A stretch of DNA of 64,000 nt from Verrucomicrobiales bacterium. Lineage in GTDB: Bacteria > Verrucomicrobiota > Verrucomicrobiia > Limisphaerales > UBA11320. The stretch is from NCBI GenBank assembly GCA_016793885.1, contig JAEUHE010000039.1:1-64000 (forward strand). The letters are read 5' to 3'. Shown piece after piece: positions 13,226-57,496 of this stretch. The position numbers and the translations under genes were made by a program. Numbering within the stretch: position 1 is the stretch's first letter; each line of letters opens with the position of its first letter. Below the pieces are notes generated by a model. That model had not been told where the DNA came from. It worked only from the letters and a program-made list of their open reading frames with translations, and searched no databases.

Positions 13226-13596
13226 GGCTTCTCCGTCTCAGATGCTGCCTCATCATCGGCTGAACGAGTGGCTTGCTCAAGGCCGGCCCTGGAGATTTCT
13301 AGCGGCTGACTTCACTTCCGACTTGTGAGACCGCCCGGACTGAAGTATAACCGACACGCTGGATGTCTAGTTCCAGGACACCAGCGAATTCCCGATATTC
13401 CAGAGTCGCTCTCCAGTCAAAACGGATTTTGACGATGGTTTCAACGGCCCCTAGGTGGGGCCAGTTGATGAGGGATAGCACGGAGAACCATCAGGACCCC
13501 CAGCGTCCACGGCTGGCGGGTTTAGCTGGCCAATTGATGATCAAGATCTTGGCCTGCTGGGATGGTTGCCGATGTGTGCCAGTAGACGTTGCCTTT
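13226..13596. other. divergent intergenic region upstream of giant gene A
   Basis: These 371 bases lie between the divergent S8 protease and giant gene A and should hold both promoters. I see no consensus promoter pair, operator palindrome or riboswitch. An open frame from 13363 runs through into the giant gene, but its translation before 13597 lacks secretory or domain character, so I treat it as leader. Confidence 0.5.
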
Positions 13597-28500: not shown

Positions 28501-31500
28501 GGACGGCTGGTGGCGAGTGGTAGTGCGTTGGATCCGATCGTCTTCACCTCTGCCAATGATATCGCCGGGCTTGAGGCCAATCCGGGTGACTGGAAGGGGA
28601 TCACGCTGAGCGCGGGTGCAACCGGATCGGTTCTCCGGCACGTGTTCGTCCAGTTTGGTGGCGGCCTGACCCTTAGCAACGTCTCGCCCACCGTGGAGGC
28701 GTTTACAGCGCTTCGCAACTCGCCGGCTGGGCTCACTTTGCTGGGCTCCGCCTCGCTGACGACAACCGAGGCTTTGATCGCCTTCAACGACATCGGACTG
28801 ATCAGCACCAGCACTGGAGTGGTGAACCTCCGACAATCGGTGGTGAAGAACAATCCTACCAACGCTTTCTCAGCGGGTGCTGGCTCCATCATTGCGACTC
28901 AAAACTGGTGGGGAACCTCGGTCGCCGGGGAGATCGATGGCTCTCTGCGCGGGACTGTCAACCGATCCGGATTCCTGTTGGGCGAGCCCTTGCTGACGCC
29001 CGCGATCGGGCTGTCCAACGGCGTGACCCAAGTGGGTAGCCGCGACATCCGCCTCCGGCTCGCCTGCCGCACCGCCGACTCCGTGCGTGTGAGCGAGGAT
29101 TCCGCCTTCCTGGCCATCTTCTATCAGGCCTTCCGCAGCCCATTGGATTATCAGTTGAGCGACGGGGGTGGTTCGAAAACGGTCTACGCTCAGTTCCGCA
29201 GTGTAACGGGTCAAACGAGCGCTCCGGTTGCTCTGACACTCAGCTACATCACCGCCGGTCCCAATCTGACCGCCTTCAGCCTTACGGAGGGGCAGGTCCT
29301 CACGCGACCCTTGACGGTCACGGCAGGCGCCTCTGCGCCTTTGGGGATGGCGGGCATCGACTTCCTGGTCGATGGTCAGCTGGTCGCCACCCAGCCCGGC
29401 GGCGCGTTTGCTTATCGTTACGATATGCGCTCGTCCACCAACGGAGTGCACCGCGTTCGCCTTGCCGCCCGCGACACCAGCGGGAACCTCGCCACGCGGG
29501 AGCTGAACGTGACGTTCAATCTGTCGCCTCCGCCCGCACCGTTGATCACCACTCCCGCCAGCGATCTGAACGGAAGCGAGAGCACGATCTCCGTGCGGGG
29601 CACAGCTGAGCCTCTGATCCCGATTCGTTTGGTGCAGAACAGTGCCCCGGCCGCAACTGGTGCCGCCGACGCTGCCGGCAATTGGAGCTTCGACAACGTA
29701 TCGCTGGTGGAAGGCAACAATGCCTTCGTTGCGACGGCTTTCGACACCCTAGGCTCCGCGGTTTCCGGGATCCGCAATGTGGTCCGAGACACCGGACCAC
29801 CCGCTGCTCCTGTGCTGGACACTCTGTACTACAACGTCATCGAGGGGTTAGGTCTGTCCTGGACGTTTGCGACCGCTGGCGAGCGACCGGCGTTCTTCCG
29901 TGTCTATTGGCACTCGAACAGCTTCACGACCACCGCGCAGGCCAGTCGTCAAAGTCCGATCTTGACCGCGATGAACTACCGTCCCTCGGGGCTCACGCCG
30001 GGAAACTACTATTTCGCGGTGGTTGGTTACGACAGCGCGGGGAATGCCAGTGCGCTCTCCAACCTGGCTCCCTTCAACTACGATCCCGTCCCGCCGTCCT
30101 TCACGGTTTCCTACAGCAAGGTTTCACCTGTGGCAGTAGGCCCTCTGAGGATCACTCTCGTTTCCTCGGAGCCGCTCGTTTCCGTTCCCTCGCTGACCCT
30201 GGTACCCACCGGCAGCACGCCGGTGGCACTCACCCTTAGCAACGCGGCCTTGAACACCTTTGAGGCGACTCTGAATGTCACGCCTTCCTTTGCCTCTGGT
30301 GCCTTGGGTTTGGTGGTGTCGGGCCGGGACCTTTCCGGCAACACCTTCAATGGACCGCCTCAGGGTCCGTCGATGGCTATTGATGTCCGGCCTCCCACCG
30401 GCAGCATTGTCACGGTGCCTGGAGCGCCGGTTCAAACGACGAACGCGACGCTGGTAACGGTGAGCCTCACGCTCAATGAACCCGCGAAACCCGGGACTAC
30501 CCCGACGGTGGGCTTCACCCCGCCGGTCGGACCGCTCGTCAACATCCCGGTCACCGGAAACGGCTCCAACTGGATTGGATCGTTCACCGCCGTGGCCGCC
30601 ATGGGTTCTGGGTATGGCACGTTCACCCTCAACGCGCGCGACGCGCTGGACAACATCGGTCAACTGATCACTTCCGGCCAAACGTTGGAGCTCTACAACA
30701 CAGCGCTGCCCAAGCCGCCCGGACAGCCGGTTAACTTCTCCGCCAGCAGCTTGAGTGAGGGTCGGGTTCGATTGTCATGGACCGCCGTCTCGAATGCCGA
30801 GAGCTACCGCCTCTATTCGCAGCCCGGCACCAATGTGTTCCTAACTCCGACCAACATGGTCGCTGAGACCATCCTTTCTAACAGCTGGATCGATTTGCCG
30901 CCGTCGGACGGTTACCACCTCTACAGTGTGACCGCTGTTCGTCGGGGTTCGGAAGGAACCAACTCCATCACCCGCGCCGTGATCTCGGATCGAACGCCGC
31001 CTCCCACTCCGGTTCAGGTGGCCGTCCAACTGCTGAGCAGCGGCGTCCAGGTTTCATGGGCGGCTGGAGCCGGTGAGGTCCCCTCCCTGTTCAAGGTCTA
31101 TCGCAACGGCCAAGCGATCCGCACCGTGAATGGCTCGGGGGCTACGGCCATTGTTGACTCTCCGCCGCGTGGGGTGATGAGCTATACGGTGGCTTCCGTG
31201 GATGCGCTGGGCAACGAAGCGATCAGCAGCGCCGCCAACATCGAACTGTTTGTGGGCGCGGTTCAGAACTTCACTGCGCTGGTGCGTTCGGGTGAACCGC
31301 CTCAGTTGACCTGGAACTCCTCGGACAACACCGCCGTCGGATACAATGTCTACCGCAACGGCATCAAACAGAACGGCGCCCCGCTGACAGCGCTTCAGTT
31401 CACTGATGCGTTGGGCGTTCAAGCTGGCAGCCGTATCCAGTACATCGTCAGGGCCGTCAACTCGACCAACGCCGAGAGCGCCCCGAGGACGGTCAACGTG

Positions 31501-34500
31501 AACGATGTCTCACTGGGATTCTTCCACAACCTCGCCGGCGATGTGGAGCAGCCGCTGGTAACCGACTACTTCGACAACCTGTTGGTGATCGTGTCGAATC
31601 GAACGACCTCTGCGGCTTTGCCCTTGGGCGTGGTTCAGGTTCACCGTTCGATCCTGGGCTTGCCGTCGCTCTCCCGGAGCAACCAGGTGCACGAGCCGGT
31701 GCCCGAGGGCGGGGTGCTCGAGACCTCGGTCATCATGCCGGCAGCGAAGGCTCCGGAGCCGGAAGGCTTCCTGGTGCGCGCTATTCAGGACGCCGATGCC
31801 GGTGGCAGCCGGGCGATCTACGAGGAAGCATTCGCTGGCGGAGCGGTGGTGCGTCCTGCGACTCGCATGACCTTGAACGCCACCCAACAGCCTCTGGCCG
31901 GTGGCCTTTCGACCCTGAGCCTGACGGTCTTCAATCAGGGGTTTGCCGATTTGGATCTGCTGGTCACACGTGCCAATGGGTCTGACCCCGGAGATCTGTC
32001 GATCTCGGTCCAAAACTCCCTCGGAGCCGAAGTCAGTAAACTGGATTACATCGGCGTTCCTCCTGGAACCATCTTCACTTCCGACGGCCGGGGCTATCTG
32101 CGCATTCCTCCCGCCGGATCGCGCTCGATCACCATCCCGGGGGTTCTGGTCCCTGAATCCCTGGGGACCAACAGCGCCGCGTTCGTGGCCACGTTCAGCA
32201 AGCTCTACTACCGGCTCGGTCAGGAGAACGAAGACGTCTCCGGGCCGATCTCCGGCTCCATGGTCTCTGCTTTGGCGGTCACCCCGTACTATGGCGTTGC
32301 GACGACCGACAGCCGGCTTTATGCCGACCGCGATCCCATTATCATCAGCGGCCAGGCCATCGACCGGGCGACCGGCCAGCCGAAGCCCAACGCCCCGCTG
32401 CGCATCGGGTTTTCGATCAGTGGCGCCAAGTTCTGGAACAACGTGACCAGCGATATCTCCGGTAGCTTCACCTACACCTACAATCCTCCTCAGGGTATGA
32501 GCGGCACCTTGAACATCTGGGCCGCCCACCCCGATGTGGTCGACACTCTCAATCAGGCCGAGGTGAAATTGTATCGCTGCTACCTCAGCCCTGCCAATGT
32601 GGATATTCGGATGTCCAAGAACGGGACCCAGCGGTTTTTCCTCACCCTCATCAACACGGGTGACGAGGAGCTCACCGGCTTCGCTCTGGCAAGCAGCGCC
32701 TACACCTTCGTGGGTGACGTCAAGACCCCGACCTCGACCGTCACCGCGCGTTCGTTGATGGAAACCAACTTCGTGCTGCGCCCTCGATCCACCGAGAAGA
32801 TCAACTTCGAATTGGTGGCCACCCTTGACGCCCCCGACAACGCGGTCATCGACTTCAACCTTCGCTCCAGCGAAGGAGCCTCGGCCACCTTCCACGCCAA
32901 CTTGACGTTGCTCCAGGCGAACCCGCTGCTCGTTCTGACGGATCCCTCGGTGGGCTATGTGGAGGCGAGCGTCAATCGAGGTGACATCCGCAGCCGGTCA
33001 GTCACCATCGTCAACCGCGGCTTGCGTCCGCTGCAAGGCGTCACCATGCAGCTCCCGACGAATGTCACCTGGATGTCGGTGAACCTGCCAGCCAACTCCA
33101 ACGGAGTGGTCAACCTGCCCGACCTCCCGATCGGGTCGAGCAACAGCTTTACGGTGGTCTTTGCCCCGCCCGCCTCGACGCCGCTGGATGCTTTTCAGGA
33201 CAAGCTGATCATCCGGGGAACCAACTCGCCCGCCGTCTTTGAGACCGGGCTTTTCGCTCTCGTCACTTCACAGGCCAAGGGGAGTGTGCGCTTCTTCGTC
33301 GACAACATTCTGGTGGAGCCGGTGCCCAATGCCACCGTGCGCATTCGAAACACCCTGATCGGTCAGGACTTCACGGTGAAGACCGATGCCAACGGCTTTG
33401 TGACCGTGAATGATCTGCAGGAAGGTCCATGGGCCTGGCAGGTAACGGCGGCGGGTCATTCCGCCGAGGTGGGCGTCATCGAAGTGATCCCTGACCAAAC
33501 GGTGCTGGTGGAAACCCGGCTCTCGCGGGCCCTGGTCACGGTCAACTTCTCCGTCGTCCCGGTGCCCTACACCGATCGCTACGAGATCGTCATTGAGCAG
33601 ACCTTTGAAACGCATGTGCCCGCTCCCGTGCTCGTGCTCACGCCGCCGCACATGGATTTCAAGAACGTAGGCTATGGCTATGAGGCCACCTACATCATGA
33701 CCGCCAAGAACTACGGCCTGATCCAGATGACGGATGTCACCATCCGAGGCATGAGCGATGGTCGAGGTGGCGTCTTGTCCCCGCTCATCAGCTATCTGCC
33801 CGTGCTCCGCGCCCAGGAATCCGTCGAGATCCCGATGCGCTTCACCTTCCAGGCTCCGAACACCGGGTCCGTCGCCGGGGCGGGCAAGGTGGCCAGAACC
33901 TATACCGATCGGCGTAAGAGTCTGACCCGCGACATCGACGCCGATGGAAATATCACGGGTGGCGTTCAGTTCCCGCCTTCCTTCGGCGACAACGCGACAC
34001 CGTCGCAGGCCTTTGCGGACTGCGCCACCGGCGGGTTGGGCGGGTTGGCGGATCTGGTGGGCGGCCTGATGGCGATCGCCAACGCCTGCGCGACCTGTGC
34101 TGACTTGCGCACGGCCATGGCCATCGCAGCGAGCGCCGCGATTACCTACTCGGTGCTCTGCTCGCCCAACTTCAGTCCCATTCCGGTCTCACCTCTCCCA
34201 TGCCCTTCGGGGAACTGGGTGGTCTCCTTCTTTATCAACCTGGCCAGTTGTGCGTGCCAAGCGTTAGGATGCTTTGGTGCGGGTGACGGCGGAAGCAGTA
34301 GTCCGGGCTCCGGTTTGGGTCGCGGACCTCAAAGCTTCTCGCAGTTCAGCCCGGGCGGTCCCGGATGCTTCACGGCTGACACACTGGTTACCCTGGCCGA
34401 TGGATCCACCAAGCGCATCGATGCGGCGGTGGTTGGGGACCGAGTTAAGACGGGGCCCGGCTCCGGCGACTATGCGGTGGTGCGCGAAGTCCAGACCCGC

Positions 34501-34848
34501 AAGGTGGTCGACCTGCTGGTGATTCATTCCGAGAGCCGCACCTTGGAGACCACCGCGGAACACATGCTCTGGTTGGACGGCAAAGGCTGGTCCCAAGCGG
34601 GTCAAGTTCGGGTGGGCGACTGGCTGACCGACACCACTGGCGAGCGCGTCCGGGTCAACAGGATCGAGCATCAGCCCGGGGAATTCACCGTCCACACTCT
34701 CATCAACTCCGGCGATCATACCTTCTATGCCAATGGCCTGCTGGTGCAGGACAGCTGCGGAGCTCCGTCGGTGGTCGCGCCGTTCTCCGGCTTCACCCTT
34801 CCGCCGCCCAGGATTGAGGACGCGCGGGCAAAGGAGGTGGCCCGATGA
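13597..34848 (+). CDS. giant extracellular mosaic protein A with C-terminal Hint domain
   Basis: About 7,083 residues. The start at ATG 13597 gives a clean signal peptide (MLPRMLCRLLLVRVLLPG, cleavage near AVQA-A); the frame is open from 13363 but the extra 78 residues are not secretory. Modules in order by nucleotide: LamG 13717-14350; Ig and PPC-like domains to 16370; FG-GAP/VCBS repeats 16480-17480; PPC; LamG 18181-18830; C-type lectin 19000-19375; VCBS 19770-20800; PPC; LamG 21480-22120; VCBS 22620-23640; PPC; C-type lectin 24490-24840; CARDB 25930-26670; InlB-B-like repeats 26680-27370; FN3; right-handed beta-helix 28345-28990; Ig and FN3 to 31500; a conserved module 32281-33900; a Cys-rich hydrophobic stretch 34000-34360; Hint 34366-34758. 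It is likely a surface or secreted adhesin/processing protein. The stop overlaps the next start (ATGA). Confidence 0.93.
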   Translation: MLPRMLCRLLLVRVLLPGLIAAPLLVPLTAVQAACLPPPVGLATLYSGNGSALEPVSGLHGLMGAGVTITNAFAGQGFAFRDDPSSVMYLPESPVWSPTNNQFSIECWIQPNFAVSGDKLDTILSKREGCSTVAYQFGVYKGHQGPAKVGLLYFSIGGVGLDSTNRIPNDGQFHHVAAVFDGSQTNQNMRLYLDGVAVGAASVSVTIPVTSSAPVIGQHGGCNYFSSAVMDEISFYNRPLSLAEIQSIQAAGSSGKCIPAVTGVPVPYFTDFESGAGAGWSLRLTDGSEPMRFSRFLGRLGSDDVLLTLTGLSPGTSYTLGFDFYALDSLDGGNTSSGDVLGVWADNQLLFRESFANYNGNPPGGVQTFPRSPDEGRAAFGFVPSYVDAIYRNIELTFVPSNSVSVLRFWGLNLQELGDESWGIDNVRVRSTAAAGAPIISSTTLPTPGTTQSIALDRFTVAASRPLQPAAATNLANWSLRSAGPNSTLGDGDDVTVGLSAALVPAFNTGRSIQFTILGAVPLQPARYRFSSGAGLVDTNGVAVTPFTQDFTIVHPSPGRLETPGSDSIATASDLSMIETPAGSGFQTAIGSGIFSAAGDVDYWRFDAEVGDVVTLRLETLGAGTNPQMQLQTVSGSNLASVGGGADGVVGIDRYRFGSPGTYFVRVWSDQRPAAYRLRVDLGRSAQLEAEPNDTIAQATPLTLTFGAGLAQGRVAGTTLGAVDLFALLNLNAGNSVSVTARYPDGSTLAPQGVVLSLLAGTEPVATVAGNSLNFLLQASTNYLVRVTSTNADLRSQYVLDIAVSDSVPPQITSTSFPAQGGSAATLFDRFTLGFSEDMSPVAVTNSSVYELRSAGPDGNFNTADDAIYPIVPDAYSTGLSASYSILDGPVQPGLTRLRVSTGLSDRIGNGLASTFQLTFTITNPPGYFMETRGNDVAGKAALFLNPGNGNPSGTLGFAYNLTGSNNPEFMAAADLNGDGRPDLAVAQRAGGVMIYTNDGTGQLIASTNLTGINDAVSVVVGRFNNDTLPDLAATSYNGASVVLALGVPGGWVVGTPITGAPGAYQHVGADFNNDGFTDLAVPNFNGGSLVVLLCNGNGGFAPPVSYPVTGNVMQVAAGKLNNDAHVDLVATSTSGNVAALLGKGDGTFQPAVNYPSGAGTRAVAIGDVNGDSLLDVVSAAVGDDTVNVLLGKGDGTFLARVDYSSGVSDPYHLGLGDFDGDGRLDVLVPGYGSGNWSLLINNGAGGFEDPKVYPLGNSPIGTAIADFNADGRQDVVLSRYSSRLLSAYYGLPNLAPAEDPAGSGVRTHLARGTLSTGADQDYYQFFGQAGERVVVAIEVPGAPSNSGLRVDLYRYDDVILNTFYATSSGWGQSPPLTLAQKGTFFVRVTENHGYRGEYRIRVTRVPATIGFEVEDNNTIAGANYPSFVSTNSQLTGVMAGYLSYGDALGDHFDLGFLEAGTTINLGLQQPSSAGVRGVLSVLDGSGQVQSSSASGSTNLSYVVPVGPGGNYSARILADPLPPAQTFGGTPGSSLLFNGLNQYVRVPDAPALRPANLTLECWVNFAAPVDADVLVAKGLGNGDDNSYALWYSKPEGVLRGYISGGPTLSVPWVPEIGRWYHLAYVFDDAANLQSLYVDGQTVTAGTVNTSINYDTRPLHLGADSVGDGVNHHFAGKLDEIRVWTVARASNEIASARSLRLVGTEPGLAAYWRLDDGVGAVAADATPNSNQGALIGFPVWSPSGTAAPSSAPLAAQYLLRLNLQEAKSLQVVTTTLPSESASISNLVQSFVVGFNEELDPQINLLNRVVYTQGSRQFVVSDTALSWIDAESLAVSLGGHLARVTSADQNAFLARTFSAAATGDLWIGYNDRSAENSFSWVGSGAPGYVNWQNGQPDNNGGADGAVLAIPGGGWYDDVIRTQRRGLIEVPQLPDADGDGLASSLDPYASDRLNGFDLRASGTDGLFDTGDDLLYRLRLNTYARGTNVSFFVVDGPLQYGSYRFSVTPSIKDRFGNALAASFVRRFAVVPVSGFGIEGRTNGTLGLATPVTGSLPGAALDGSFQETYRLSKGSKAHHLVATNLNGDANIDLVVNNFDDGTLSVFLGQPDSSFINLTNVPVGSGPVGFSLADFNKDGKLDLSVDLYQAARMAILLGDGTGRFTALTNYVTPSQPYYQAVGDLNADGNLDVAVATVAGGRVTLFFGLGNGAFNPGVDITTGAGAFSVAIGDIAGDGTADDLAVANRSAQTLSVLIANGGGTYAAPVQYPVTTTAGALALYDFNSDTFLDAVVVAGGDINYFAGRGDGTFLDRKTFAVPTSDPYETALADIDGNGTMDLVLPAYGNSRLVTVLNLGDDQFGGVLNYAISGRPISAVVHDFNKDGRLDIATANHDSADIAFLYGKGTQIPTLDPATRLRSVAARGMLAEASDLDYWSFSGRLGDRLTLALESLGAAASSQLRYYLYRPDGSEVDNFVTDNLGRGEFSVGLTAAGTYSIRVERYDAYAGEYRLRVTLAPGAYQNESESNNTIATADPVAFSLADGRQTADLFGYFSSGDSGDYFRLGNLSPGTEISLTPQRPASGTVLATPAVYDASEALVALAAPGQTNLSYVIPAGQSGAHYARLIPTFLRSPNNATNALWFDGADDSVRVGAWSPGKRWTAQAWIFPTATPAGRRTIVGGLGGCQDWALTLQDGRPGLAYRPTDGASSCSASIAAATPVDLARWYHVAGVSDGTNVFLYVNGILAGTAAVDPAWNPYAGGVWIGGEVCCGNYFAGLISSVSIWNRPLSAAEIGSFLAANPVGNETGLVGYWPLDDGAGNTARDLSSVNRPGTLFNAPNWSPLSPLSRGGLGVQAEYRLNISLRDTSSPFVTTTTLPAAGSSIGTLLDRFSLSYSEDMSPATVLSTNSYELRNAGANQIFDAQDDSFYTVQNSPAYANGLTANYLIPDGPLQPGLYRLTVRTQLTDTSGTPLASNYVHQFSVTNTPGFIQESRANDSIATAVGLGAPVPGSLGLFRAGSPVAVGTNPEYSLLADLNGDAKQDLLVVNYGENTFSVFLGGGDGSFALKTNWTSTAAGPLQPVLTNFNGDAFPDFAVGNYGAGSVSIYLGNGNGSFRVLTNYATGTQVVGMAAGDFNGDGRVDLASANYGSGNVSVLLGLGGGLFQPAVQYPVGGAPYQLVTGDFNKDGRLDLVTATYNTDNLALLLGKGDGTFPAPSTIPTGNAPYAVQSGDLDADGNADLVTSGSDGVLLVFRGNGNGSFQTPLKLATGLGLNYYIAIGDLDKNGRADLVATGFNVDRVGILFQTGPLNFEPSVSYATGGRPLGINIGDINNDNRPDLAIVNYGSAQMTFLLGREKETLSPDGGDQTFALARGVIFSNADTDYWSFPAGAGDSVQVVIENPGDPAASGRCIDLYSPAGGSAIETWCADYNGRGTFSRVLPSAGIYSLRVRYNYSFAGEYRLRVSVVSAPVQVEVESNDSTGASQSLTWTESPTKRSAKVFGTIHRDDSAGDFFRLGNLSAGVLLQLSHTAPASSTLSHQWAVYKGNTLLTNAPAAAASFAYAIPPGAGDDYYVRVTALSGTSGLQATYFLGLEVFDGEGPQVVSTTLPPSGSASESLIDRFSLEVSEDLNVEIARLAQRPVVNGTHAYQRTSVSTSWRNASEEARLLGGTLVTINDVLENQWLNDTFGGGLWIGLSDELQEGSFVWQDGAATTFVNWNAGEPSNSANEDFAVLLDGGKWNDEGLAGSHFGIMEFAGSDGDGDGIPDVVDVYPSDPYNLFDLRGAGADDAFDTSDDVRYTLQAPAYTSGTSLAFAVLNGPIQPGRARLRVTTSLRDRLGNPSTAVYDQVFSIVSIPGLQAASQTNSTPSTATPLALQEGPVNFRTALARGKLFGNGDAEYWSFNGKAGDLVSIAAEVPGAPGATGLRYRVLSTTGAAIIDLYAEYAGFGQSDPVTLASNGVYRVLVTQNYGYYGEYRFRVALSTPPLQVENEANDSIATASSLALQQDGNARFGAAMGTQGKAADLDYFALGNITNGSSVFLNVRLPQGSTYVPVVALYNAAGQYQNEVVGGRAGDEIAEVRVLATGNYFALVRGGGGSLSDIRSQYQLDVQVVPTGSVSFPNLQVTDLSLPGGSPLSGQSISFGFSVTNVGQLATPVSSWVDRAVLSLNPVLGDADDIPLGFFNRVGTLNPGVGYAVNGSATLPEGVSGDYLLIAQTDAGNAVNEFIFETDNITVSGNSFRINRAPYPDLKVEDLQATGPTGQGIYTLRWRTANRGDGLAKTGFRDRLVVRNLNNGQVIVTSDIPVPAGLAVGASLQRETTVTTTNAGTYQVQVTTDALNENYEFDAAGHDSAELNTAVTQFVIAQFFEIAVGASPSEGGAVTGAGSYVSGNPLTVTAKANTNDRPYFFVNWTEAGVFQSASPSYSFTVSRPRSLVANFSLPAYSITASNNPVVAGSIEGQGTYFHGASAVLIANPNPGYRFVNWTEQGQVVGLLPRLTNTITAQRFLVANYAEANPFHVVTTATSPSGLAVISGSGTYSNGQSTTITAPARLTNSPTLFTFREFRLNGSPAGSTRSFSKTFSTLDPTNLQYIAYYDSNSLLPVVVRASGGFTNIGVGGYTTVTNPVPASSDYRISLQFDRSMNPAINPLVLVTNSSGAAQPSLTGAGYWLSTIETNDTYRTPAIGFGPGLDGLSLVKVSRAQDKTGLTMAAADVLALVVDVTPPVQPSPVLVSSNSASATFGWSSYAAPADLGGFRVYRASTPFTVLTGLTPITTLGRNARSHVFTGLSLDTPYHIAIVALDAAGNAPSTVASIPMSLPRSVPAPVALVLTAQDASSASLSWAGYSTANLLGFEGFWLFYETTPFTSVQGLTPKQTLGAGVRSAEVLGLDRSFTYYVAVVGYNSAGGHNPQVTTQTWKDPFAGRITSNLNLGSADAPVVDILQPMVITSNATLTVRAGTTIRFAAGAGITVEQGRLVASGSALDPIVFTSANDIAGLEANPGDWKGITLSAGATGSVLRHVFVQFGGGLTLSNVSPTVEAFTALRNSPAGLTLLGSASLTTTEALIAFNDIGLISTSTGVVNLRQSVVKNNPTNAFSAGAGSIIATQNWWGTSVAGEIDGSLRGTVNRSGFLLGEPLLTPAIGLSNGVTQVGSRDIRLRLACRTADSVRVSEDSAFLAIFYQAFRSPLDYQLSDGGGSKTVYAQFRSVTGQTSAPVALTLSYITAGPNLTAFSLTEGQVLTRPLTVTAGASAPLGMAGIDFLVDGQLVATQPGGAFAYRYDMRSSTNGVHRVRLAARDTSGNLATRELNVTFNLSPPPAPLITTPASDLNGSESTISVRGTAEPLIPIRLVQNSAPAATGAADAAGNWSFDNVSLVEGNNAFVATAFDTLGSAVSGIRNVVRDTGPPAAPVLDTLYYNVIEGLGLSWTFATAGERPAFFRVYWHSNSFTTTAQASRQSPILTAMNYRPSGLTPGNYYFAVVGYDSAGNASALSNLAPFNYDPVPPSFTVSYSKVSPVAVGPLRITLVSSEPLVSVPSLTLVPTGSTPVALTLSNAALNTFEATLNVTPSFASGALGLVVSGRDLSGNTFNGPPQGPSMAIDVRPPTGSIVTVPGAPVQTTNATLVTVSLTLNEPAKPGTTPTVGFTPPVGPLVNIPVTGNGSNWIGSFTAVAAMGSGYGTFTLNARDALDNIGQLITSGQTLELYNTALPKPPGQPVNFSASSLSEGRVRLSWTAVSNAESYRLYSQPGTNVFLTPTNMVAETILSNSWIDLPPSDGYHLYSVTAVRRGSEGTNSITRAVISDRTPPPTPVQVAVQLLSSGVQVSWAAGAGEVPSLFKVYRNGQAIRTVNGSGATAIVDSPPRGVMSYTVASVDALGNEAISSAANIELFVGAVQNFTALVRSGEPPQLTWNSSDNTAVGYNVYRNGIKQNGAPLTALQFTDALGVQAGSRIQYIVRAVNSTNAESAPRTVNVNDVSLGFFHNLAGDVEQPLVTDYFDNLLVIVSNRTTSAALPLGVVQVHRSILGLPSLSRSNQVHEPVPEGGVLETSVIMPAAKAPEPEGFLVRAIQDADAGGSRAIYEEAFAGGAVVRPATRMTLNATQQPLAGGLSTLSLTVFNQGFADLDLLVTRANGSDPGDLSISVQNSLGAEVSKLDYIGVPPGTIFTSDGRGYLRIPPAGSRSITIPGVLVPESLGTNSAAFVATFSKLYYRLGQENEDVSGPISGSMVSALAVTPYYGVATTDSRLYADRDPIIISGQAIDRATGQPKPNAPLRIGFSISGAKFWNNVTSDISGSFTYTYNPPQGMSGTLNIWAAHPDVVDTLNQAEVKLYRCYLSPANVDIRMSKNGTQRFFLTLINTGDEELTGFALASSAYTFVGDVKTPTSTVTARSLMETNFVLRPRSTEKINFELVATLDAPDNAVIDFNLRSSEGASATFHANLTLLQANPLLVLTDPSVGYVEASVNRGDIRSRSVTIVNRGLRPLQGVTMQLPTNVTWMSVNLPANSNGVVNLPDLPIGSSNSFTVVFAPPASTPLDAFQDKLIIRGTNSPAVFETGLFALVTSQAKGSVRFFVDNILVEPVPNATVRIRNTLIGQDFTVKTDANGFVTVNDLQEGPWAWQVTAAGHSAEVGVIEVIPDQTVLVETRLSRALVTVNFSVVPVPYTDRYEIVIEQTFETHVPAPVLVLTPPHMDFKNVGYGYEATYIMTAKNYGLIQMTDVTIRGMSDGRGGVLSPLISYLPVLRAQESVEIPMRFTFQAPNTGSVAGAGKVARTYTDRRKSLTRDIDADGNITGGVQFPPSFGDNATPSQAFADCATGGLGGLADLVGGLMAIANACATCADLRTAMAIAASAAITYSVLCSPNFSPIPVSPLPCPSGNWVVSFFINLASCACQALGCFGAGDGGSSSPGSGLGRGPQSFSQFSPGGPGCFTADTLVTLADGSTKRIDAAVVGDRVKTGPGSGDYAVVREVQTRKVVDLLVIHSESRTLETTAEHMLWLDGKGWSQAGQVRVGDWLTDTTGERVRVNRIEHQPGEFTVHTLINSGDHTFYANGLLVQDSCGAPSVVAPFSGFTLPPPRIEDARAKEVAR
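34366..34758 (+). other. Hint (intein/hedgehog-like) domain of giant protein A
   Basis: This segment starts with a Cys nucleophile in PGCFTADTLVTLADGS (Cys6924 of the protein). It has the B-block TxxH as TTAEHMLWLDG and the late block HTLINSGDHTFYANGLLV. These are the conserved Hint blocks found in inteins, hedgehog proteins and polymorphic toxins. The C-terminal His-Asn that normally precedes Ser/Cys is QD-SC here, so the N-S acyl shift may be possible while C-terminal Asn cyclisation is lost or altered. Only about 30 residues follow, with no toxin domain. Confidence 0.88.
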
Positions 34849-37800
34849 ACACCCCTCTCACACTCCCTCGAACTGAATCAGCTCTGGATATGTTCCTGCC
34901 TAGAACTTTGAAGACACTCGCGCATCGCTGGCTGATGGTGATCAGCCTGATTCTCCCGCTGGCCAGCCTCCAGGGCCAGCAGCAATTCCAGGGCGTCTGT
35001 TCCCGGGTCAAAATGGTCATCGAACAGGAGCTGACCTTGGAGCGAATCGGGTTTGAAGCGACCCTGGAGGTGACGGATAATGATGGGGCCGATCCGATCA
35101 CTGACTTCTTTGCGGAGCTGACGTTCGAGAATCCGGTCGGTGGAACCAATGGCGCGCCGGTCGATGCCTCATCGCTCTTTTTCGTTCGGGCCCCGACTTT
35201 CCAAAACATCAACAGCATCGATGGGAATGGAGTGATCGCTCCCACCACCAAAGCGGTTATCCGGTGGTTCATCATCCCCAAGATCGCTGCGGGTGGAACC
35301 AGCCCCGCCGGGTTGCGCTATCGCGTGGGTTGCAAGTTGGCCGGCAAGATCCGTGGGGCCACCATTCCTGGTGATGTCTTGTTCGCGGTTCCGGACACGA
35401 TCACCGTCCGTCCCGAACCCCAGCTCGAGATTAACTATTTCCAGCCTCGCGATGTGCAAGGCGATGATCCGTTCACTCCCGAAGTTGAGAGTCCCATCCC
35501 GTTCACCCTGGGTGTGTTGGTGAAGAACGTGGGCCACGGTCCGGCTCGTAAGCTTAAGATCGATTCCAAGCAGCCGCGGATCGTCGAGAACATCAATGGA
35601 TTGTTGTTGGTGGCTCAGTTGCTCGGCGCGCGTGTTGCGGACGTTCCGCAGCGGACCCCCAGCCTGTTGGTGGATCTGGGCGACATCCAGCCTGGACAGA
35701 CTCGCAAGGGTTCCTGGGATATGATCACCTCGCTGTCGGGCGAGTTCGTAGATTTTCGCGCCAGTTATCGGCATGCGACGGAACTAGGCGGGGAGGAGAC
35801 CTCGGTCATCATCGCTCTCAACGCCCATTTTATCGCGAAGGAGGTTCTTAACGACGAGCCGGGGCGCGATCAGCTCAAGGATTTTCTCGCTGACGTAGAC
35901 CGGGATGTCGACATGTATCCGGACAGCCTTTACGAAAGTCAGGGCGAGGTGCTGCCCGTGAACCTGCTTTCCGACGCCACGGTCATCGGCAGCGCCGGGG
36001 CAGGCGGAAGCTTCGAAGTTCGAGTGAGCGCCGACAAGGACGGGTGGGGTTACGTGCGAGTGGTCGACCCCGGGCAAGCCAAGCTGAAGATCGGGAGTGT
36101 GGTTCGTTCCGATGGCAAGGTCGTCAACACGAACAATGTCTGGACGAATATCCGCTACACCAAGCTGGGAAACACGCGTCAGAACTGGCTCAATATTTTC
36201 GATCGGGTCGACCTGGGTAACTACACCTACCGAATAACGTATGCTGCCGGCGGTCCCGACACCATAGCTCCCGTCACCACCTTGCACTTCGCCGGCCCGG
36301 CGACCGAGTCTGGCTCCACGGTGTTTATCACGCCCGCAACGCAGATGTACTTCATCTCCGAGGACGTGAATCCGGTCAGCATCGTCTACAGTCTCACCAA
36401 TTCTCCGTTCATTCCGGCCTTACCCTTCACACTCAACCAGCCGGGGAATTACAAAATCGTGTACTATGCCACCGACAACGCGGGTAACCGGGAGGTGGCC
36501 AAAACCAACCTCCTGGTGGTCTCGGGTGAGGCCTCGTTGGATTTTTCCAAAGTCACCTCGCCAGCGGACGCGATCTTTGTTCCAGGCGATGCTCTCTCCA
36601 TTCGGCCGTCCGAGGCTCCCATCCAGTTTCAGATTCAACCCAATCCCGCGGAGACGGCAGCCAAGCTGGACATCTTTCAGGGTGTGATCGGCTGGGTAAC
36701 CGTCAGCAATACCCCGAGCTCGCCGACCCGCAATACCTCCGCGACGCTCACCATCGGCGGGGACCAGGTGCAGTGGTATCGGTATCGTTTGGATTCTGCT
36801 GCGTGGAGCGCCGAAATTCCGGTCACCTCCCCGCTCGTTTTGAGCAATCTGTCCAATGGTCCGCACACGGTCGCAGTGCTGGGGCGATCCAGCCAGGGTA
36901 GCTACCTTCCCGAAACCAGCGCTGTGGTGGTGGGATGGACGATCAACCCCACCGCGCCGCCGGTCTTGATCTCGGGTGTTCCCCCGACGCCGAGCCGGCT
37001 GCGAAACGCGACTCTGACGATTGGCGGATCCGGAGTGACCGATTACCGCTGGACCCTCAACGGCTCTTTCTTCCGCGCGGAGACTCCCGTGGCTAACCCG
37101 CTCATCCTCCCGACTCTCGATCCGACTCAGCAGGTGGTGTCGGTGGTGGGCAAGTCAGGCGGCATCTTCCAGCTGATCAGCAACGCGACCACAGCGACCT
37201 GGCTCACGGATCCCACCTATGGATCCGATTTTTCGTCGCTTCCCAAAGTATACACCCGAGTGTTTACCAACGTGGCAACCAACCTCATCTCCTTCAACTG
37301 GGATGGGAAAGACCAAGGGGGTGCCATTCTGCCGCCCGGGTATTACACGGCCCGCATCACCCTCAGCGATGCGCTGGGCCGTACCAATTTCACGACGCGG
37401 CTGATCCAAATCGGCAACCTCACTTCCGATCCACAGACCTTGGCCGATGTCATCCGTGGCCCGCGCAACCCTCATGCCCGGGGACGCTGGGGCGTGTGGC
37501 AGGATCAAAGCGACGGCTATTCTCAAGTGTACGCGCAGAATCTCGCGGAGTCAGGCACCCAACCCTTAAAGCTCACTTCTGGGATCCTGAGCCAGGAGTC
37601 GCCCAAAACCGATGGGCGTCATGTGGTCTGGCAAGGCCGACAGACGAATGCAACTTGGGACATCTACATCAAGGATCTGCAGAGCGCCGCACCTCCCCGA
37701 AAGATCACTGACACCGCCAATCGCGATGAGGTGAATCCGTGCATCGAGTGGCCGTGGGTCGTTTTCCAAAGTCGCGTGGCCGGCAACGCCAGCGCCCCGT

Positions 37801-38873
37801 GGCAGTTGCGCGCCTACCATGCCGTCTCGGGGGACACCGTGATCGTTTCCTCCTCGACCCAGGATCAGCTGGATCCCGACATCCAGGAGGGCCGAGTGGT
37901 TTGGCAGGACTTCCGCAATGTCGGATTCGGAGAAATCTATTTCAAGAATCTGGAGACTGGCGAAGCGCGAAGGATCACCACCAACCCCTTCGGTCAGTAC
38001 AGCCCGGCGATCTACGATCGATGGATCGTCTGGGCGGACAACCGCAACGACCAGGTGGATATTTACGGATACGATCTGTTCCGGGACACGGAAGTCCGCA
38101 TCACTCAGACTCCCGAGGATGAGTTCCGTCCCTACTTGGACGGAACTTGGCTGGCGTGCCTGGAGGACTCTTTGGGAGTTACCCAACCCAACGTCCGCCT
38201 GATTCATCTTCCCACTCTGCGGGCGGTACCCATCACCCGCACCCGCACCCAAAAGGACCGCGTGGCCATCTCGGGTGGCCGCGCCGTCTGGCAAGAGGCG
38301 GTGACCAACCTGGCTCGAATTCAGGTGGCCGAGCTGCCCGCACTCCAGGCTGTCTTCCAGAATGCCAACGCCGTGGCGATTACGCCGGCCATGGCTTCTT
38401 CGCAGCGCAATGCCCACACCTTGCTGACCCTCTGGCATCAGCAAGCCGGCATCCAGTCGATCAGCCGTTATTCCTCCCTGGTTCCCAAGCCCGTGAAGGA
38501 GACGGCCACTTGGAGCGGTGCCGGGCCGAGTGGCGCCAACTTTGATCTCGTGGCGGGAAGCTTCCTCTGGATCGAGTTTGAGTCTGGCCGAGTTCTCGAC
38601 CTCGGGGCAGCTGGTGCCGCCAGCCTGAACCTGGCCTCCGGTGTCAATGCCTTCAGTTTCTCACGCTTTCCCAGTCAATACAGCGCCTACCAGTTGCTCG
38701 GTCAGCTGGGGGTCGCCAATGCCCGTGGGGTTCGGATGTTGGACTCCGAATCCGGCCGGTGGCTGGTGGCCAGTTATGAGTCCGGGCGTTTGGTGGGTAA
38801 CGACTTCCTGATACCCAAGGTTGCCGTCCTTTTGCTCGATATGGCGAATCCGGTGAACAATTTCCGTCCTTGA
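34845..38873 (+). CDS. secreted partner protein with conserved module and TolB-like propeller
   Basis: 1,342 residues from ATG 34845 inside the ATGA overlap; an internal ATG at 34890 is an alternative. A signal-peptide core (WLMVISLILPLASLQG) is followed at ~49-470 by a module (VCSRVKMVIEQELTL ... YFQPRDVQGDDPFT ... QPRIVENINGL) clearly homologous to the middle of giant protein B (VCAKVRMELSQDITL ... YFQQRDVYSDDPFT ... QPRIIENEKGL). Ig-like domains follow to ~790, a FlgD-type Ig at ~806-855, then a beta-propeller at ~869-1160 of TolB-like repeats (VVWQDFRNVGFGEIYFKNL, WIVWADNRNDQVDIYGYDL). The function is unknown. Coupling and the fused homologue predict a complex with giant protein A. Confidence 0.88.
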   Translation: MNTPLTLPRTESALDMFLPRTLKTLAHRWLMVISLILPLASLQGQQQFQGVCSRVKMVIEQELTLERIGFEATLEVTDNDGADPITDFFAELTFENPVGGTNGAPVDASSLFFVRAPTFQNINSIDGNGVIAPTTKAVIRWFIIPKIAAGGTSPAGLRYRVGCKLAGKIRGATIPGDVLFAVPDTITVRPEPQLEINYFQPRDVQGDDPFTPEVESPIPFTLGVLVKNVGHGPARKLKIDSKQPRIVENINGLLLVAQLLGARVADVPQRTPSLLVDLGDIQPGQTRKGSWDMITSLSGEFVDFRASYRHATELGGEETSVIIALNAHFIAKEVLNDEPGRDQLKDFLADVDRDVDMYPDSLYESQGEVLPVNLLSDATVIGSAGAGGSFEVRVSADKDGWGYVRVVDPGQAKLKIGSVVRSDGKVVNTNNVWTNIRYTKLGNTRQNWLNIFDRVDLGNYTYRITYAAGGPDTIAPVTTLHFAGPATESGSTVFITPATQMYFISEDVNPVSIVYSLTNSPFIPALPFTLNQPGNYKIVYYATDNAGNREVAKTNLLVVSGEASLDFSKVTSPADAIFVPGDALSIRPSEAPIQFQIQPNPAETAAKLDIFQGVIGWVTVSNTPSSPTRNTSATLTIGGDQVQWYRYRLDSAAWSAEIPVTSPLVLSNLSNGPHTVAVLGRSSQGSYLPETSAVVVGWTINPTAPPVLISGVPPTPSRLRNATLTIGGSGVTDYRWTLNGSFFRAETPVANPLILPTLDPTQQVVSVVGKSGGIFQLISNATTATWLTDPTYGSDFSSLPKVYTRVFTNVATNLISFNWDGKDQGGAILPPGYYTARITLSDALGRTNFTTRLIQIGNLTSDPQTLADVIRGPRNPHARGRWGVWQDQSDGYSQVYAQNLAESGTQPLKLTSGILSQESPKTDGRHVVWQGRQTNATWDIYIKDLQSAAPPRKITDTANRDEVNPCIEWPWVVFQSRVAGNASAPWQLRAYHAVSGDTVIVSSSTQDQLDPDIQEGRVVWQDFRNVGFGEIYFKNLETGEARRITTNPFGQYSPAIYDRWIVWADNRNDQVDIYGYDLFRDTEVRITQTPEDEFRPYLDGTWLACLEDSLGVTQPNVRLIHLPTLRAVPITRTRTQKDRVAISGGRAVWQEAVTNLARIQVAELPALQAVFQNANAVAITPAMASSQRNAHTLLTLWHQQAGIQSISRYSSLVPKPVKETATWSGAGPSGANFDLVAGSFLWIEFESGRVLDLGAAGAASLNLASGVNAFSFSRFPSQYSAYQLLGQLGVANARGVRMLDSESGRWLVASYESGRLVGNDFLIPKVAVLLLDMANPVNNFRP

Positions 38874-38883
38874 TCCGATCCCG

Positions 38884-39741
38884 ATGAAAACGATCTCTAC
38901 TTTATTCATGTTGCGCCGACTCTCCTGCGTTGCCGTGGCCTTGGCCCTGGGGCTTCTGCAGCTTCCCGCCGTCCAACCTGCGGAGGTTCAACGCCGCATG
39001 CAGGCCGGCGAGAAGGTGATGTTCATCGATGTGCGCAGCACGGATTTTTTCCAGAAGGGGCATGTGCCGGGCGCCATGAATGTGCCTGTTGGTTTGCTGG
39101 CAGAGAAGCGCCTGCCCAAGCTCGGACGGGTGGTTCTGTATGATGACGGTCTGGGCGGTGGACAGGCCGAGACGGCTCTGCCGCTGCTCAACGCCAAGCC
39201 CGGCATTCAAGCCGAGATCCTCGAAGGTGGATTTGCCGGCTGGACCGAGTCGGGTGGCGCCACCACCGCCGCTTTTGGGATTTCGAAAGAAGAGATCCCG
39301 ATGATCACCTATCAAAAGCTCAAGGCGGTTTCCCCTGACGATGTCGTGCTAGTGGATTTGCGCACGGTGACACCCGCGCCGGCCGCCGGCCCAGCTGCCA
39401 AGTCGACCGTGGCCGCGCCCGCGCTGACCGACTTGCGTTCGGAGTTTCCCGGAATGCCCGTCACCAAGTCACCTTTCGCGCTGGCGACGACCCGCAAATC
39501 GGGCACCCCTGGAGCCGGGGGCAGTCCCTTGCTGGTGTTGGTGGACAATGGCGATGGCAAGGCCGAGGAAACCGCGCGAGCGCTGCGAGCCAACGGGGCC
39601 ACACGGTTTGTGATTTTAGCGGGCGGCGAAAGAACGCTGTCCCGCCAGGGCCAGCCGGGGTTGCAACGATTGGGACAGACCGTGGAGGCTCCGGCCGATT
39701 TCCCGGCAACCATCACGACCTCTACCAATCGAAATAAGTAG
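38884..39741 (+). CDS. secreted tandem rhodanese-like protein lacking catalytic Cys
   Basis: A 285-residue protein with a signal peptide (SCVAVALALGLLQLPAVQPA). The first rhodanese fold (~35-125) keeps VMFIDVRSTDFFQKGHVPGAMNVP and GGFAGWTESGG, but the active-site loop reads VVLYDDGLGGGQA with no Cys. A second, more diverged repeat (~140-280; VVLVDLRTV, LLVLVDNGDGKAEETARAL, VILAGGERTL) also lacks the loop Cys. Sulfur transfer is therefore unlikely; a binding or structural role fits better. It starts ten bases after the propeller protein's stop and 18 bases before the next gene, so it is within one transcription unit. Confidence 0.85.
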   Translation: MKTISTLFMLRRLSCVAVALALGLLQLPAVQPAEVQRRMQAGEKVMFIDVRSTDFFQKGHVPGAMNVPVGLLAEKRLPKLGRVVLYDDGLGGGQAETALPLLNAKPGIQAEILEGGFAGWTESGGATTAAFGISKEEIPMITYQKLKAVSPDDVVLVDLRTVTPAPAAGPAAKSTVAAPALTDLRSEFPGMPVTKSPFALATTRKSGTPGAGGSPLLVLVDNGDGKAEETARALRANGATRFVILAGGERTLSRQGQPGLQRLGQTVEAPADFPATITTSTNRNK

Positions 39742-39759: not shown

Positions 39760-41442
39760 ATGACGCTCCTGGGGATTACAAACTTGGAAACAAACCTCGC
39801 TGTTCCGTTCCTGCGCTCCGCATGGTTGCGTTGGACGGTATTGCTTGCCTGCTGCGGATCGGCCTTGGCTCCGCTCGAAACAGCAGCTCAGACCGCCCAG
39901 ACGAATACGATCGTCGCCAACGTCACGCCGAGCGGCTTCACCCTCGTTTGGCGTGGCCCGATCGGAGCCGCGCCGGATGTGCGACTCTTTGCCGACGAGG
40001 CGGGCACACAAAGCCTCGATGGGCAGCTGGGCGTTGAGCCTTATCCCGTTCACACGGGTTATCCCCGGGCCACCAACACTTTTGAAAAGCGGCTCAGCAA
40101 GGCCTGGCTGCGCGGGAAGACGACTGGTTACGGGCTCGAATCAGTCCGCGTCACGGGCGCGAAGCCGTCGACCACTTACTATTATCAAGTTGTTTCCAGC
40201 TCCGCCACCGCGACGAACCTGACTCCGCAGACGCCGCCCTTGCCCTTCGTTCGCACCGCCGAACGCAACTCCCTCGTGCCTGACTCGGTGCAGGTGCTGA
40301 TGGACGTTCAGGGCTTGGACGTGGCGGGCCGAATCGTCACCCTGACTCACTCCAACTCCGTGAGCGCCTTGGCTTCCGTGGTGGGGGATGGCGCAGGAAC
40401 GAATCAGGTCTGGTTTAACCTCGCCGAGCTGATCGACCTGGCGGGAGGCAGTAATTTTACTCCCAACGGCAGCCTGCGCTTCGTGGCTCAGGTTCTTGGT
40501 GCCGGTCCGGATGGGGGGCGCGCCTTGCCGGTCAACGTCGAGTTTACCGACGCCTTCCGAGTGGCTCGATCCGTCCTTTCCCAGGCGACCAGCGAGTTGG
40601 TCGTGGTTTCCTTGGGATCGGGGGTGATGCAAGGGGGCGAGACCAGCAGCGTGCCGGTCTCCCTCGATGCGACCATCCCGTTGGGCAGTCTGAGCCTAAA
40701 TTTCCGGATTCCCCCCGGGCATTTGACGAATCTGGTTTTGGAGGCGATCGCTCCGGAGGTGGATCCTACCAAGCTCGCGTTAACGCCTGCGGCCGGGGGC
40801 TTTTGGTCGGCCAAAATCGTCCCGCGACCCGGGCAGGCCTTGTTTGCCGCGACCGAACTTGTCCGCCTCAAGTTCGCGGCGCTCGGACAGGTGCCTTCCG
40901 CTTTCGTTCCTTTGCAGCTTTCGACGGTGAGTGCGACCAAGCCGGACAACACCGTGGCGAATGTCGCTCTCTTCCGCTCCGGCCGAATGGTCGTGGTGGT
41001 GAACGAGCCCCTCTTGGAGGCCCATCCGGGAGTGGATGAAACGCGGCCGGTGACCCTCTATGGCAAGCCCTCGTTTGGCTACGCGATCGAGTCGGCTGGG
41101 AACACTCAGGGTCCTTGGACGCTGCAGACGAAGGTGGCCATGACCAATCTTTCGCGACTTCTGAACCTTCCCTCGATTCCGCAGCCGCTGACCTTCTATC
41201 GCGCCTATGAAATTGCGGCCGGAGCTCCCGAGTTGCAGATCACTCGTCGCTCATCAAATCAGGTTGATCTGTTGGTGTTTGGGGCTGCTGGCAAGAACTA
41301 CACCTTGCAGTCCGCGCGCAGCCTGACTCCGCCGCTGGTGTGGAACGATGTCTTGACCTTCAGTCTCACCAACTCGGTTCGCACTTTGGAAGGTATTCGG
41401 ACCACCAACCCGGCCTCCTTCCTCCGCCTGTTCACGCCTTGA
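39760..41442 (+). CDS. secreted FN3/cohesin-like beta protein
   Basis: 560 residues with a signal peptide (RWTVLLACCGSALAPLETAAQ). An FN3-like domain lies at ~45-150 (VTPSGFTLVWRGPIG ... PSTTYYYQVVSSS). A cohesin-like beta-sandwich follows at ~285-415 (VMQGGETSSVPVSLD ... LVRLKFAALG ... SAFVPLQLSTVSA). A C-terminal domain ends NPASFLRLFTP. The cohesin-like part and what follows match the C-terminus of giant protein B (SAFVPLFISNVAA, GREPLLEMVESAQQVDLTIYG versus NEPLLEAHPGVDE and VDLLVFGAAGKNY). Cohesins bind partner modules, so a docking role at the cell surface is plausible but inferred. Confidence 0.8.
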   Translation: MTLLGITNLETNLAVPFLRSAWLRWTVLLACCGSALAPLETAAQTAQTNTIVANVTPSGFTLVWRGPIGAAPDVRLFADEAGTQSLDGQLGVEPYPVHTGYPRATNTFEKRLSKAWLRGKTTGYGLESVRVTGAKPSTTYYYQVVSSSATATNLTPQTPPLPFVRTAERNSLVPDSVQVLMDVQGLDVAGRIVTLTHSNSVSALASVVGDGAGTNQVWFNLAELIDLAGGSNFTPNGSLRFVAQVLGAGPDGGRALPVNVEFTDAFRVARSVLSQATSELVVVSLGSGVMQGGETSSVPVSLDATIPLGSLSLNFRIPPGHLTNLVLEAIAPEVDPTKLALTPAAGGFWSAKIVPRPGQALFAATELVRLKFAALGQVPSAFVPLQLSTVSATKPDNTVANVALFRSGRMVVVVNEPLLEAHPGVDETRPVTLYGKPSFGYAIESAGNTQGPWTLQTKVAMTNLSRLLNLPSIPQPLTFYRAYEIAAGAPELQITRRSSNQVDLLVFGAAGKNYTLQSARSLTPPLVWNDVLTFSLTNSVRTLEGIRTTNPASFLRLFTP

Positions 41443-41528: not shown

Positions 41529-42068
41529 ATGAAAACAATGGTTACCTTTCTTCTCACCTTGGCTCTGGGTGTGGCGCCGGCGATGGCGGTAGATATGTTT
41601 TTGAAGCTCGGGGATTTGAAAGGGGAGAGTGTTGACGCCTACCACAAGGACGAAATTGATGTGCTGGCCTGGTCATGGGGCATGAGTCAGTCCGGCACGA
41701 CTCACACGGGGGGTGGAGGGGGAGCGGGGAAAGCGAGCTTTCAAGATCTAAACCTCACCAAGTATGTGGATCGAACGAGCGTGAAGTTGATCGAGGGGGT
41801 CGCGACTGGTAAACACTTTCCGTCGGCCGTATTGGTCGTCCGCAAGTCGGGTGACAAGCCGGTTGAATACCTCAAGATTACCCTGGAGGATGTGATCATC
41901 ACCTCCCTGTCGACGGGCGGATCCCGCGGCGAAACTTTGCTCACGGAGAATGTCTCCCTGAACTTTCGCAAGTTTAAGGTGGAGTATGTTCCCCTGAATC
42001 CAAAGACCGGGGCACCGGAGACGGCGATTCCTTTCAGCTGGGATATCTCCTTGAACGCTGCTCCCTAA
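41529..42068 (+). CDS. Hcp-family protein 1 with Sec signal peptide
   Basis: 179 residues from ATG 41529; the frame opens earlier, but this Met begins a textbook signal peptide (MKTMVTFLLTLALGVAPAMA). The mature part VDMFLKLGDLKGESVDAY followed by EIDVLAWSWG is the hallmark N-terminus of the Hcp/TssD tube family, and the later VEYLKITLEDVIITS and IPFSWDISL segments also fit. True type VI Hcp lacks a Sec signal, and no other type VI gene occurs here, so this is a Hcp-fold protein exported on its own. It probably forms rings or binds partners outside the inner membrane. An 86-base gap separates it from the preceding gene. Confidence 0.9.
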   Translation: MKTMVTFLLTLALGVAPAMAVDMFLKLGDLKGESVDAYHKDEIDVLAWSWGMSQSGTTHTGGGGGAGKASFQDLNLTKYVDRTSVKLIEGVATGKHFPSAVLVVRKSGDKPVEYLKITLEDVIITSLSTGGSRGETLLTENVSLNFRKFKVEYVPLNPKTGAPETAIPFSWDISLNAAP

Positions 42069-42115
42069 CCGAGTGTGGCTCGACGGAGCGAACCACCGTG
42101 CCGGTGGAACCTATC

Positions 42116-57189: not shown

Positions 57190-57496
57190 GATTGAGCCAG
57201 TGTTAAGGGTGCGACGCAGCCGCGCTTGGAGCAAGAAAAAACCCATCCTCGCTGTTTACGAAAATGGCTGAGCACTTCTTTCATTCGGCGTTTAGATTTC
57301 TTGCCCTGCCCTGTTGGCTCACGGTGGCCGCACCTTCAACTCCTTGGCAGTGTGGCATGGGCGCTATTAAACCACGGTTAATCGAATCTGAAATCGATTT
57401 CAGGTAGGAGGTGACGTGCCGTTTTGACACAACGAATCCTCCTAGTCCTTTCGATTCCAGTGGACGGCAAGAAATGATGAATCTATTGAAAGGGGA
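57190..57496. promoter_or_regulatory. divergent promoter region with 16-bp palindrome
   Basis: This 307-base gap lies between giant B (-) and the SGNH enzyme (+). It contains the perfect palindrome CTGAAATCGATTTCAG at 57388-57403, a candidate operator serving both directions. TTGACA at 57424-57429 is a consensus -35 for the plus strand, but no good -10 follows at 16-19 bases. Nothing else was recognised. Confidence 0.4.
57388..57403. promoter_or_regulatory. perfect 16-bp palindrome, candidate operator
   Basis: CTGAAATCGATTTCAG reads identically on both strands and lies ~94 bases before the SGNH start and ~199 bases before the giant B start. This is a typical symmetric dimer site; the regulator is unknown. 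Confidence 0.45.

What the first reader, a model, noticed from the sequence alone, without database searches (positions are those of the whole stretch)
32281..36255. A Hint domain sits at the break point between a split and a fused version of the same protein
Giant B contains in one chain the module of giant A's C-terminus (EWSVVPTQIEDHYRVV versus NFSVVPVPYTDRYEIV), a Cys-rich stretch, then the module of the 34845 protein (YFQQRDVYSDDPFT versus YFQPRDVQGDDPFT; QPRIIENEKGL versus QPRIVENINGL). In locus A the chain is broken between these parts by a Hint domain, an ATGA overlap and a new signal peptide. The fused homologue predicts that protein A and its partner interact; the Hint thioester could even link them covalently outside the cell.
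Basis: partly seen in the sequence, partly recalled or inferred. Interest (0 to 1): 0.9.

Follow-up and report, generated by a model that had tools for sequence, protein, structure and literature searches.

The report
Hint-tailed giant protein and its partner
A giant secreted bacterial protein ends in a self-processing (intein-like) domain right where a sister protein keeps two parts fused; the arrangement is a real, conserved four-gene operon, but the self-processing domain did not cause the split, and whether it joins the two proteins is untested.

Summary
Giant A (7161 aa) ends in module A, a Cys/Gly-rich linker, a Hint domain and a 31-aa tail. Protein C starts inside A's stop codon with its own signal peptide. 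Giant B carries modules A and C, and a third piece matching downstream gene E, in one chain. The survey changes the meaning. C modules form three groups: (1) split with Hint: Hint in 49/49 loci with upstream sequence, plus a tandem rhodanese lacking the catalytic Cys (40/40) and E (34/39); (2) split without Hint, where A often carries RHS repeats, sometimes a canonical toxin-releasing Hint and toxin; (3) fused without Hint. Hint plus split is therefore one clade, not a repeated association, and splits without Hint are common. The Hint keeps Cys1 and the block-B His in essentially all copies but never the terminal Asn, and an invariant Cys follows two residues later. Its predicted fold is closest to bacterial intein-like domains. 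Best reading: a toxin-less, N-terminal-acting Hint that processes giant A's C-terminus in a secreted A-C-E complex. Covalent A-C ligation is possible but untested; an invariant, often lone, Cys in C makes an inter-chain disulfide an equally simple link.

The parts
13363..34848 (+). giant A, 7161 aa secreted multidomain protein ending in module A, linker, Hint and tail
   Evidence: ORF; BLASTP to B
33283..33891 (+). module A at the end of giant A (carboxypeptidase-regulatory-like beta domain plus PapD-like Ig domain)
   Evidence: Pfam CarboxypepD_reg E 1.5e-9; homology to B; fold matches of the B copy
33892..34365 (+). Cys-rich, partly hydrophobic, then Gly-rich linker before the Hint
   Evidence: alignments and Cys counts
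34366..34752 (+). Hint domain: Cys1 at 34366-34368, block-B His at 34561-34563, terminal Asn replaced by Asp at 34750-34752
34753..34845 (+). 31-aa tail after the Hint with an invariant Cys (34756-34758) two residues after the replaced Asn
34845..38873 (+). partner protein C, 1342 aa: signal peptide, mature QQQFQG (34977-34994), invariant Cys52 (34998-35000), C module, OmpL47-like and beta-propeller repeats
34995..36278 (+). C module shared with giant B
38884..39741 (+). secreted tandem rhodanese without catalytic Cys, conserved third gene of the Hint operon
   Evidence: Pfam Rhodanese E 5e-14; 40/40 loci with room; alignment
39760..41442 (+). gene E; its middle/C-terminal part is homologous to the C-terminus of giant B
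43786..57246 (-). giant B, 4486 aa, fused version without Hint
47374..47991 (-). module A within giant B
46795..47373 (-). Cys-rich linker of giant B between modules A and C (no Hint)
45547..46794 (-). C module within giant B
43912..44382 (-). E-like C-terminal domain of giant B

Best explanation
Locus A encodes a secreted complex in four tightly spaced genes: giant A with a C-terminal Hint, partner C, a pseudo-rhodanese, and E. Giant B is a one-chain version of A, C and E without the Hint. The Hint is a Hedgehog/BIL-B-like domain that kept only its N-terminal chemistry: outside the cytoplasm Cys1, helped by the block-B His, turns the peptide bond after A's Gly-rich linker into a thioester, which is resolved by water or another nucleophile. 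This removes the Hint and tail and gives A a processed or modified C-terminus, after which A assembles with C, as the fused homologue implies. The slot between modules A and C is where relatives carry RHS shells, toxin-releasing Hints and toxins, so this Hint most likely descends from such a payload cassette that lost its toxin. Shown: anatomy, operon conservation, residue conservation, fold prediction, evolutionary context. Inferred: thioester chemistry, cleavage, complex formation, descent from a toxin cassette.
For: Hint directly before C in 49/49 loci, pseudo-rhodanese in 40/40, E in 34/39. Cys1 in 48 of 49 with one alignment gap, His 49/49, terminal Asn 0/49, Cys at +2 49/49. Seven other Hints of the same order and three RHS-linked Hints all keep His-Asn. 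Best structural matches are BIL domains (6y75 Z 21.8, 2lwy Z 20.8), with Hedgehog close behind (1at0 Z 19.6). RHS, PT-HINT and toxin domains occupy the same slot in relatives. B-type BILs share all intein motifs but the C-terminal one and cleave at their N-terminus (PMC7765530). Fused homologues join A, C and E modules.
Against: No biochemistry. Asp, Gln or Glu at the intein end can sometimes cyclise (PMC4031507), so C-terminal cleavage is not excluded; five of 49 have His there, which cannot. Block-F Asp of inteins is not kept. Window Pfam scores are below cut-offs. Descent from a toxin cassette rests on shared position, not on a Hint tree, and the root of the C tree is unknown.
Confidence: 0.55

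Rival explanations
1. The Hint thioester is passed to partner C (for example to its mature N-terminal amine), re-joining A and C covalently outside the cell and restoring the fused chain of giant B.
For: N-terminal Hint residues kept and terminal Asn lost; C's mature N-terminus QQQ[FQY]QG is strongly conserved in the Hint clade (76% pairwise identity vs 63% for the module), while Hint-less C proteins lack it. Closest fold is a BIL from a ubiquitin-like locus.
Against: No evidence of ligation; Hint-less split systems do without it; signal-peptidase sites followed by Gln could be conserved for secretion reasons; the N-terminal motif could be shared ancestry.
Confidence: 0.12
2. A and C are linked by an inter-chain disulfide through C's invariant Cys, and the Hint is unrelated to the linkage.
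For: This Cys is invariant in 24 Hint-split, 29 fused and 8 Hint-less split C modules and is the only Cys of mature C in L155, L162, L165 and L072. A's linker has three near-invariant Cys.
Against: Cys parity gives no consistent pairing; fused segments mostly have odd Cys numbers. Homodimerisation through this Cys is equally possible.
Confidence: 0.2
3. The Hint is a structural relic with no catalysis.
For: Terminal Asn lost, block-F residues relaxed, toxin gone.
Against: Cys1 and block-B His are kept in essentially all 49 loci across several phyla although the domain is down to about 30-40% identity.
Confidence: 0.13
4. Full splicing or C-terminal cleavage still occurs, using Asp/Glu/Gln cyclisation, to release the short tail.
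For: Asp, Gln or Glu in 44 of 49; such inteins exist (PMC4031507).
Against: Position +1 is rarely a nucleophile (S/T in 6 of 37 scored), tails vary in length and sequence, five loci have His at the end.
Confidence: 0.08

Closest known systems
B-type bacterial intein-like (BIL) domains
   Same: Hint fold, N-terminal motifs kept, C-terminal motif changed, sits in a variable region of a large secreted protein
   Different: Fixed place at the end of a giant protein inside a conserved four-gene operon; invariant x-Cys-Gly after the lost Asn; activity untested
PT-HINT domains of RHS polymorphic toxins
   Same: Same slot between module A and C in Lysobacter, Pseudoxanthomonas and Rubrivivax relatives; Hint at C-terminal end of a large secreted protein
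   Different: No toxin after the Hint (11-66 aa tail), no immunity gene, no RHS shell, terminal Asn absent, Pfam cut-off not reached in the window
Hedgehog autoprocessing domain
   Same: Only the N-terminal thioester step expected; C-terminal position
   Different: No sterol-recognition region; acceptor unknown
BIL2 of the Tetrahymena BUBL1 locus (PDB 6y75)
   Same: Closest solved structure (Z 21.8)
   Different: Eukaryotic ubiquitin-like locus; wild type ends in Asn (N143)

Membership tests
Hint superfamily | Hint fold | tested here: met
   AlphaFold2 core pLDDT >95; BIL/intein/Hedgehog matches Z 15-22
Hint superfamily | Cys1 and block-B TxxH His | tested here: met
   Cys1 48/49 with one gap, His 49/49
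Hint superfamily | Pfam curated cut-off | tested here: inconclusive
   Window 24 and 21 bits, below cut-offs; Desulfatibacillum member 41.9 vs 32.1 for PF05203
Intein (class 1) | terminal Asn followed by Cys/Ser/Thr at +1 | tested here: not met
   Asn 0/49; +1 nucleophile in 6 of 37 scored
B-type BIL | all intein motifs except the C-terminal one | tested here: inconclusive
   Block A and B residues kept and C-terminal motif changed, but block-F Asp/His not kept; definition from PMC7765530
B-type BIL | N-terminal autocleavage | not testable with these tools
   needs protein
A-type BIL | terminal His-Asn | tested here: not met
   0/49
Polymorphic toxin with PT-HINT | toxin domain after the Hint | tested here: not met
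   tails 11-66 aa in 48 split loci
Polymorphic toxin with PT-HINT | immunity gene next to the toxin gene | tested here: not met
   next gene is C, overlapping by 4 bases in 20 of 24 loci
Hedgehog/Hog | sterol-recognition region after the Hint | tested here: not met
   short variable tail only
Rhodanese (third gene) | catalytic Cys in the active-site loop | tested here: not met
   absent from both domains' loops in 21 aligned sequences

The most novel reading that the evidence does not exclude
The Hint works as a dedicated extracellular protein ligase: it hands giant A's C-terminus from its thioester to the mature N-terminus of the co-translated partner C, rebuilding by peptide ligation the chain that giant B encodes as one gene.
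Probability: 0.12. Interest if true: 0.92.

Novelty: new variant of a known kind. Interest (0 to 1): 0.58.

Why it matters
It defines a secreted A-C(-E) system spanning Verrucomicrobiota and relatives, Desulfobacterota and Pseudomonadota, in which one slot holds RHS toxin cassettes, a toxin-less Hint, or a plain linker in a fused chain. The toxin-less Hint with only its N-terminal residues kept is a natural case of a Hint serving its host protein's C-terminus rather than releasing a toxin. A fused homologue gives a built-in prediction of what the processed complex should look like. It also warns against reading a Hint at a gene junction as the cause of a split.

Tried and rejected
Frameshift as the reason for the split: rejected, because 48 loci keep the break, with coupled starts and signal peptides where checked; apparent Hint-less splits L052, L056, L060 were frameshifts or N-runs in Gly-rich linkers of fused genes. 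Repeated Hint-split association: rejected, one clade. Cys parity as proof of an A-C disulfide: dropped, counts are inconsistent. A-C interface from the fused model: not resolved. Fold search of the fused model gave only generic Ig-like matches, with transthyretin-like and PapD-like domains for module A. Translocation-like hydrophobic segment before the Hint: clear in only 22 of 45. Literature searches found no description of this operon. In one search one row (L169) was cut wrongly and has a meaningless branch; the Hint group is still one side of a branch there but with low support (30), against 100.

Full report
What is there. BLASTP links A's end to B (E 1.5e-27) and C to B (37% identity, E 3e-73). 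In A, module A is followed by a Cys-rich and then Gly-rich linker, a Hint domain and a 31-aa tail. A's stop and C's start overlap as ATGA, and C has a signal peptide. A third paralog in the same genome is fused without Hint. Gene E (39760-41442) matches the C-terminus of B, so B is a one-chain version of three genes of locus A.

The Hint. Pfam scores are weak, but the AlphaFold2 model is confident and closest to BIL domains, inteins and Hedgehog. In 49 loci from a GTDB scan Cys1 is kept in 48 (one alignment gap), the block-B His in 49, the terminal Asn in none (Asp, Gln, Glu or His instead), and a Cys two residues later in 49. Seven unrelated Hints of the same order and three RHS-linked Hints all keep His-Asn. 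So the N-terminal thioester step is probably intact while the C-terminal step is lost or weakened. By motif this resembles a B-type BIL (PMC7765530); Asp, Gln and Glu can cyclise in some inteins (PMC4031507), so this is not proof.

The operon. In the Hint clade the order Hint-ended A, C, tandem rhodanese without catalytic Cys, E is conserved: Hint 49/49, rhodanese 40/40, E 34/39 where sequence is available. A's stop overlaps C's start by exactly 4 bases in 20 of 24 loci, mostly with a GGAGG-like site just upstream. None of the fused loci searched has the rhodanese in the fetched flanks, which reach only about 3.5 kb past the module. Members occur in several orders of Verrucomicrobiota, in Kiritimatiellota and Lentisphaerota, and in Desulfobacterota including the cultured Desulfatibacillum alkenivorans.

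Does the Hint go with the split? Within the clade, with one exception: L075 (also L212, same genome) keeps the Hint but lost the stop, leaving an internal signal-peptide-like stretch. Across the whole C family, no. A second large group has C as a separate secreted protein without adjacent Hint (29 of the 80 best GTDB loci), plus L160-L162, L164-L167 and L072. In many of these A carries RHS repeats between module A and the stop, some with a canonical PT-HINT and a toxin (Tox-REase-9-like in L274, an HNH-like end in L281 read by eye, Tae4-like without Hint in L261), usually with a small gene between A and C. L163 has RHS fused straight to the C module. The trees show a Hint clade, a Hint-less split clade and a fused clade. 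The split is thus not tied to the Hint, and the Hint occupies the slot where relatives keep toxin payloads. Only the best 80 of 188 GTDB hits were kept, so Hint-less splits may be more numerous still.

How A and C may be linked. Fusion in B and its kin supports a shared complex. C's only invariant Cys lies 8 residues into the mature protein, is present in all fused and split copies aligned, and is the sole Cys of some C proteins, so an inter-chain disulfide is as plausible as a Hint-made bond. The mature N-terminus QQQ[FQY]QG is conserved specifically in the Hint clade, which would fit an acceptor role but may be ancestry or secretion. The model of the natural fusion (pTM 0.65) leaves the linker unresolved and gives no interface.

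Verdict. A real and conserved Hint-bearing secreted operon; the causal reading of the split is wrong in general; the ligation idea is open and testable. Limits: mostly MAGs, quick trees without bootstrap, unknown root, no biochemistry.

Noticed in passing
window 41529-42068 and 42098-43063 (+): Two tandem Hcp-family proteins (PF05638, E 5e-40 and 6e-27) with signal peptides right after gene E; the second also has a TSP3 repeat. Not generally conserved beside the operon.
   Followed up: partly
window 38884-39741 (+): Secreted tandem rhodanese lacking the catalytic Cys in all 21 aligned homologues, yet strictly kept in the Hint operon.
   Followed up: yes
L254, L274, L281: RHS + PT-HINT + payload genes, a small gene, then a C homologue in Pseudoxanthomonas, Lysobacter and Rubrivivax: C looks like an undescribed accessory of secreted RHS toxins.
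   Followed up: partly
L164:4863-5804 (-): A transglutaminase-like protein (PF01841, E 6e-21) directly upstream of a Hint-less C; L072's A protein ends in a similar-looking Cys motif without Pfam support.
   Followed up: partly
L075 / L212 (genome G056): Single-frame A-Hint-C fusion with an internal basic stretch plus hydrophobic signal-like segment and AxA-QQQFQG site; could be a refusion or an assembly effect.
   Followed up: partly
L174, L175: Proteins with two tandem Hint domains followed by a Gly-rich linker, unrelated to this operon.
   Followed up: no
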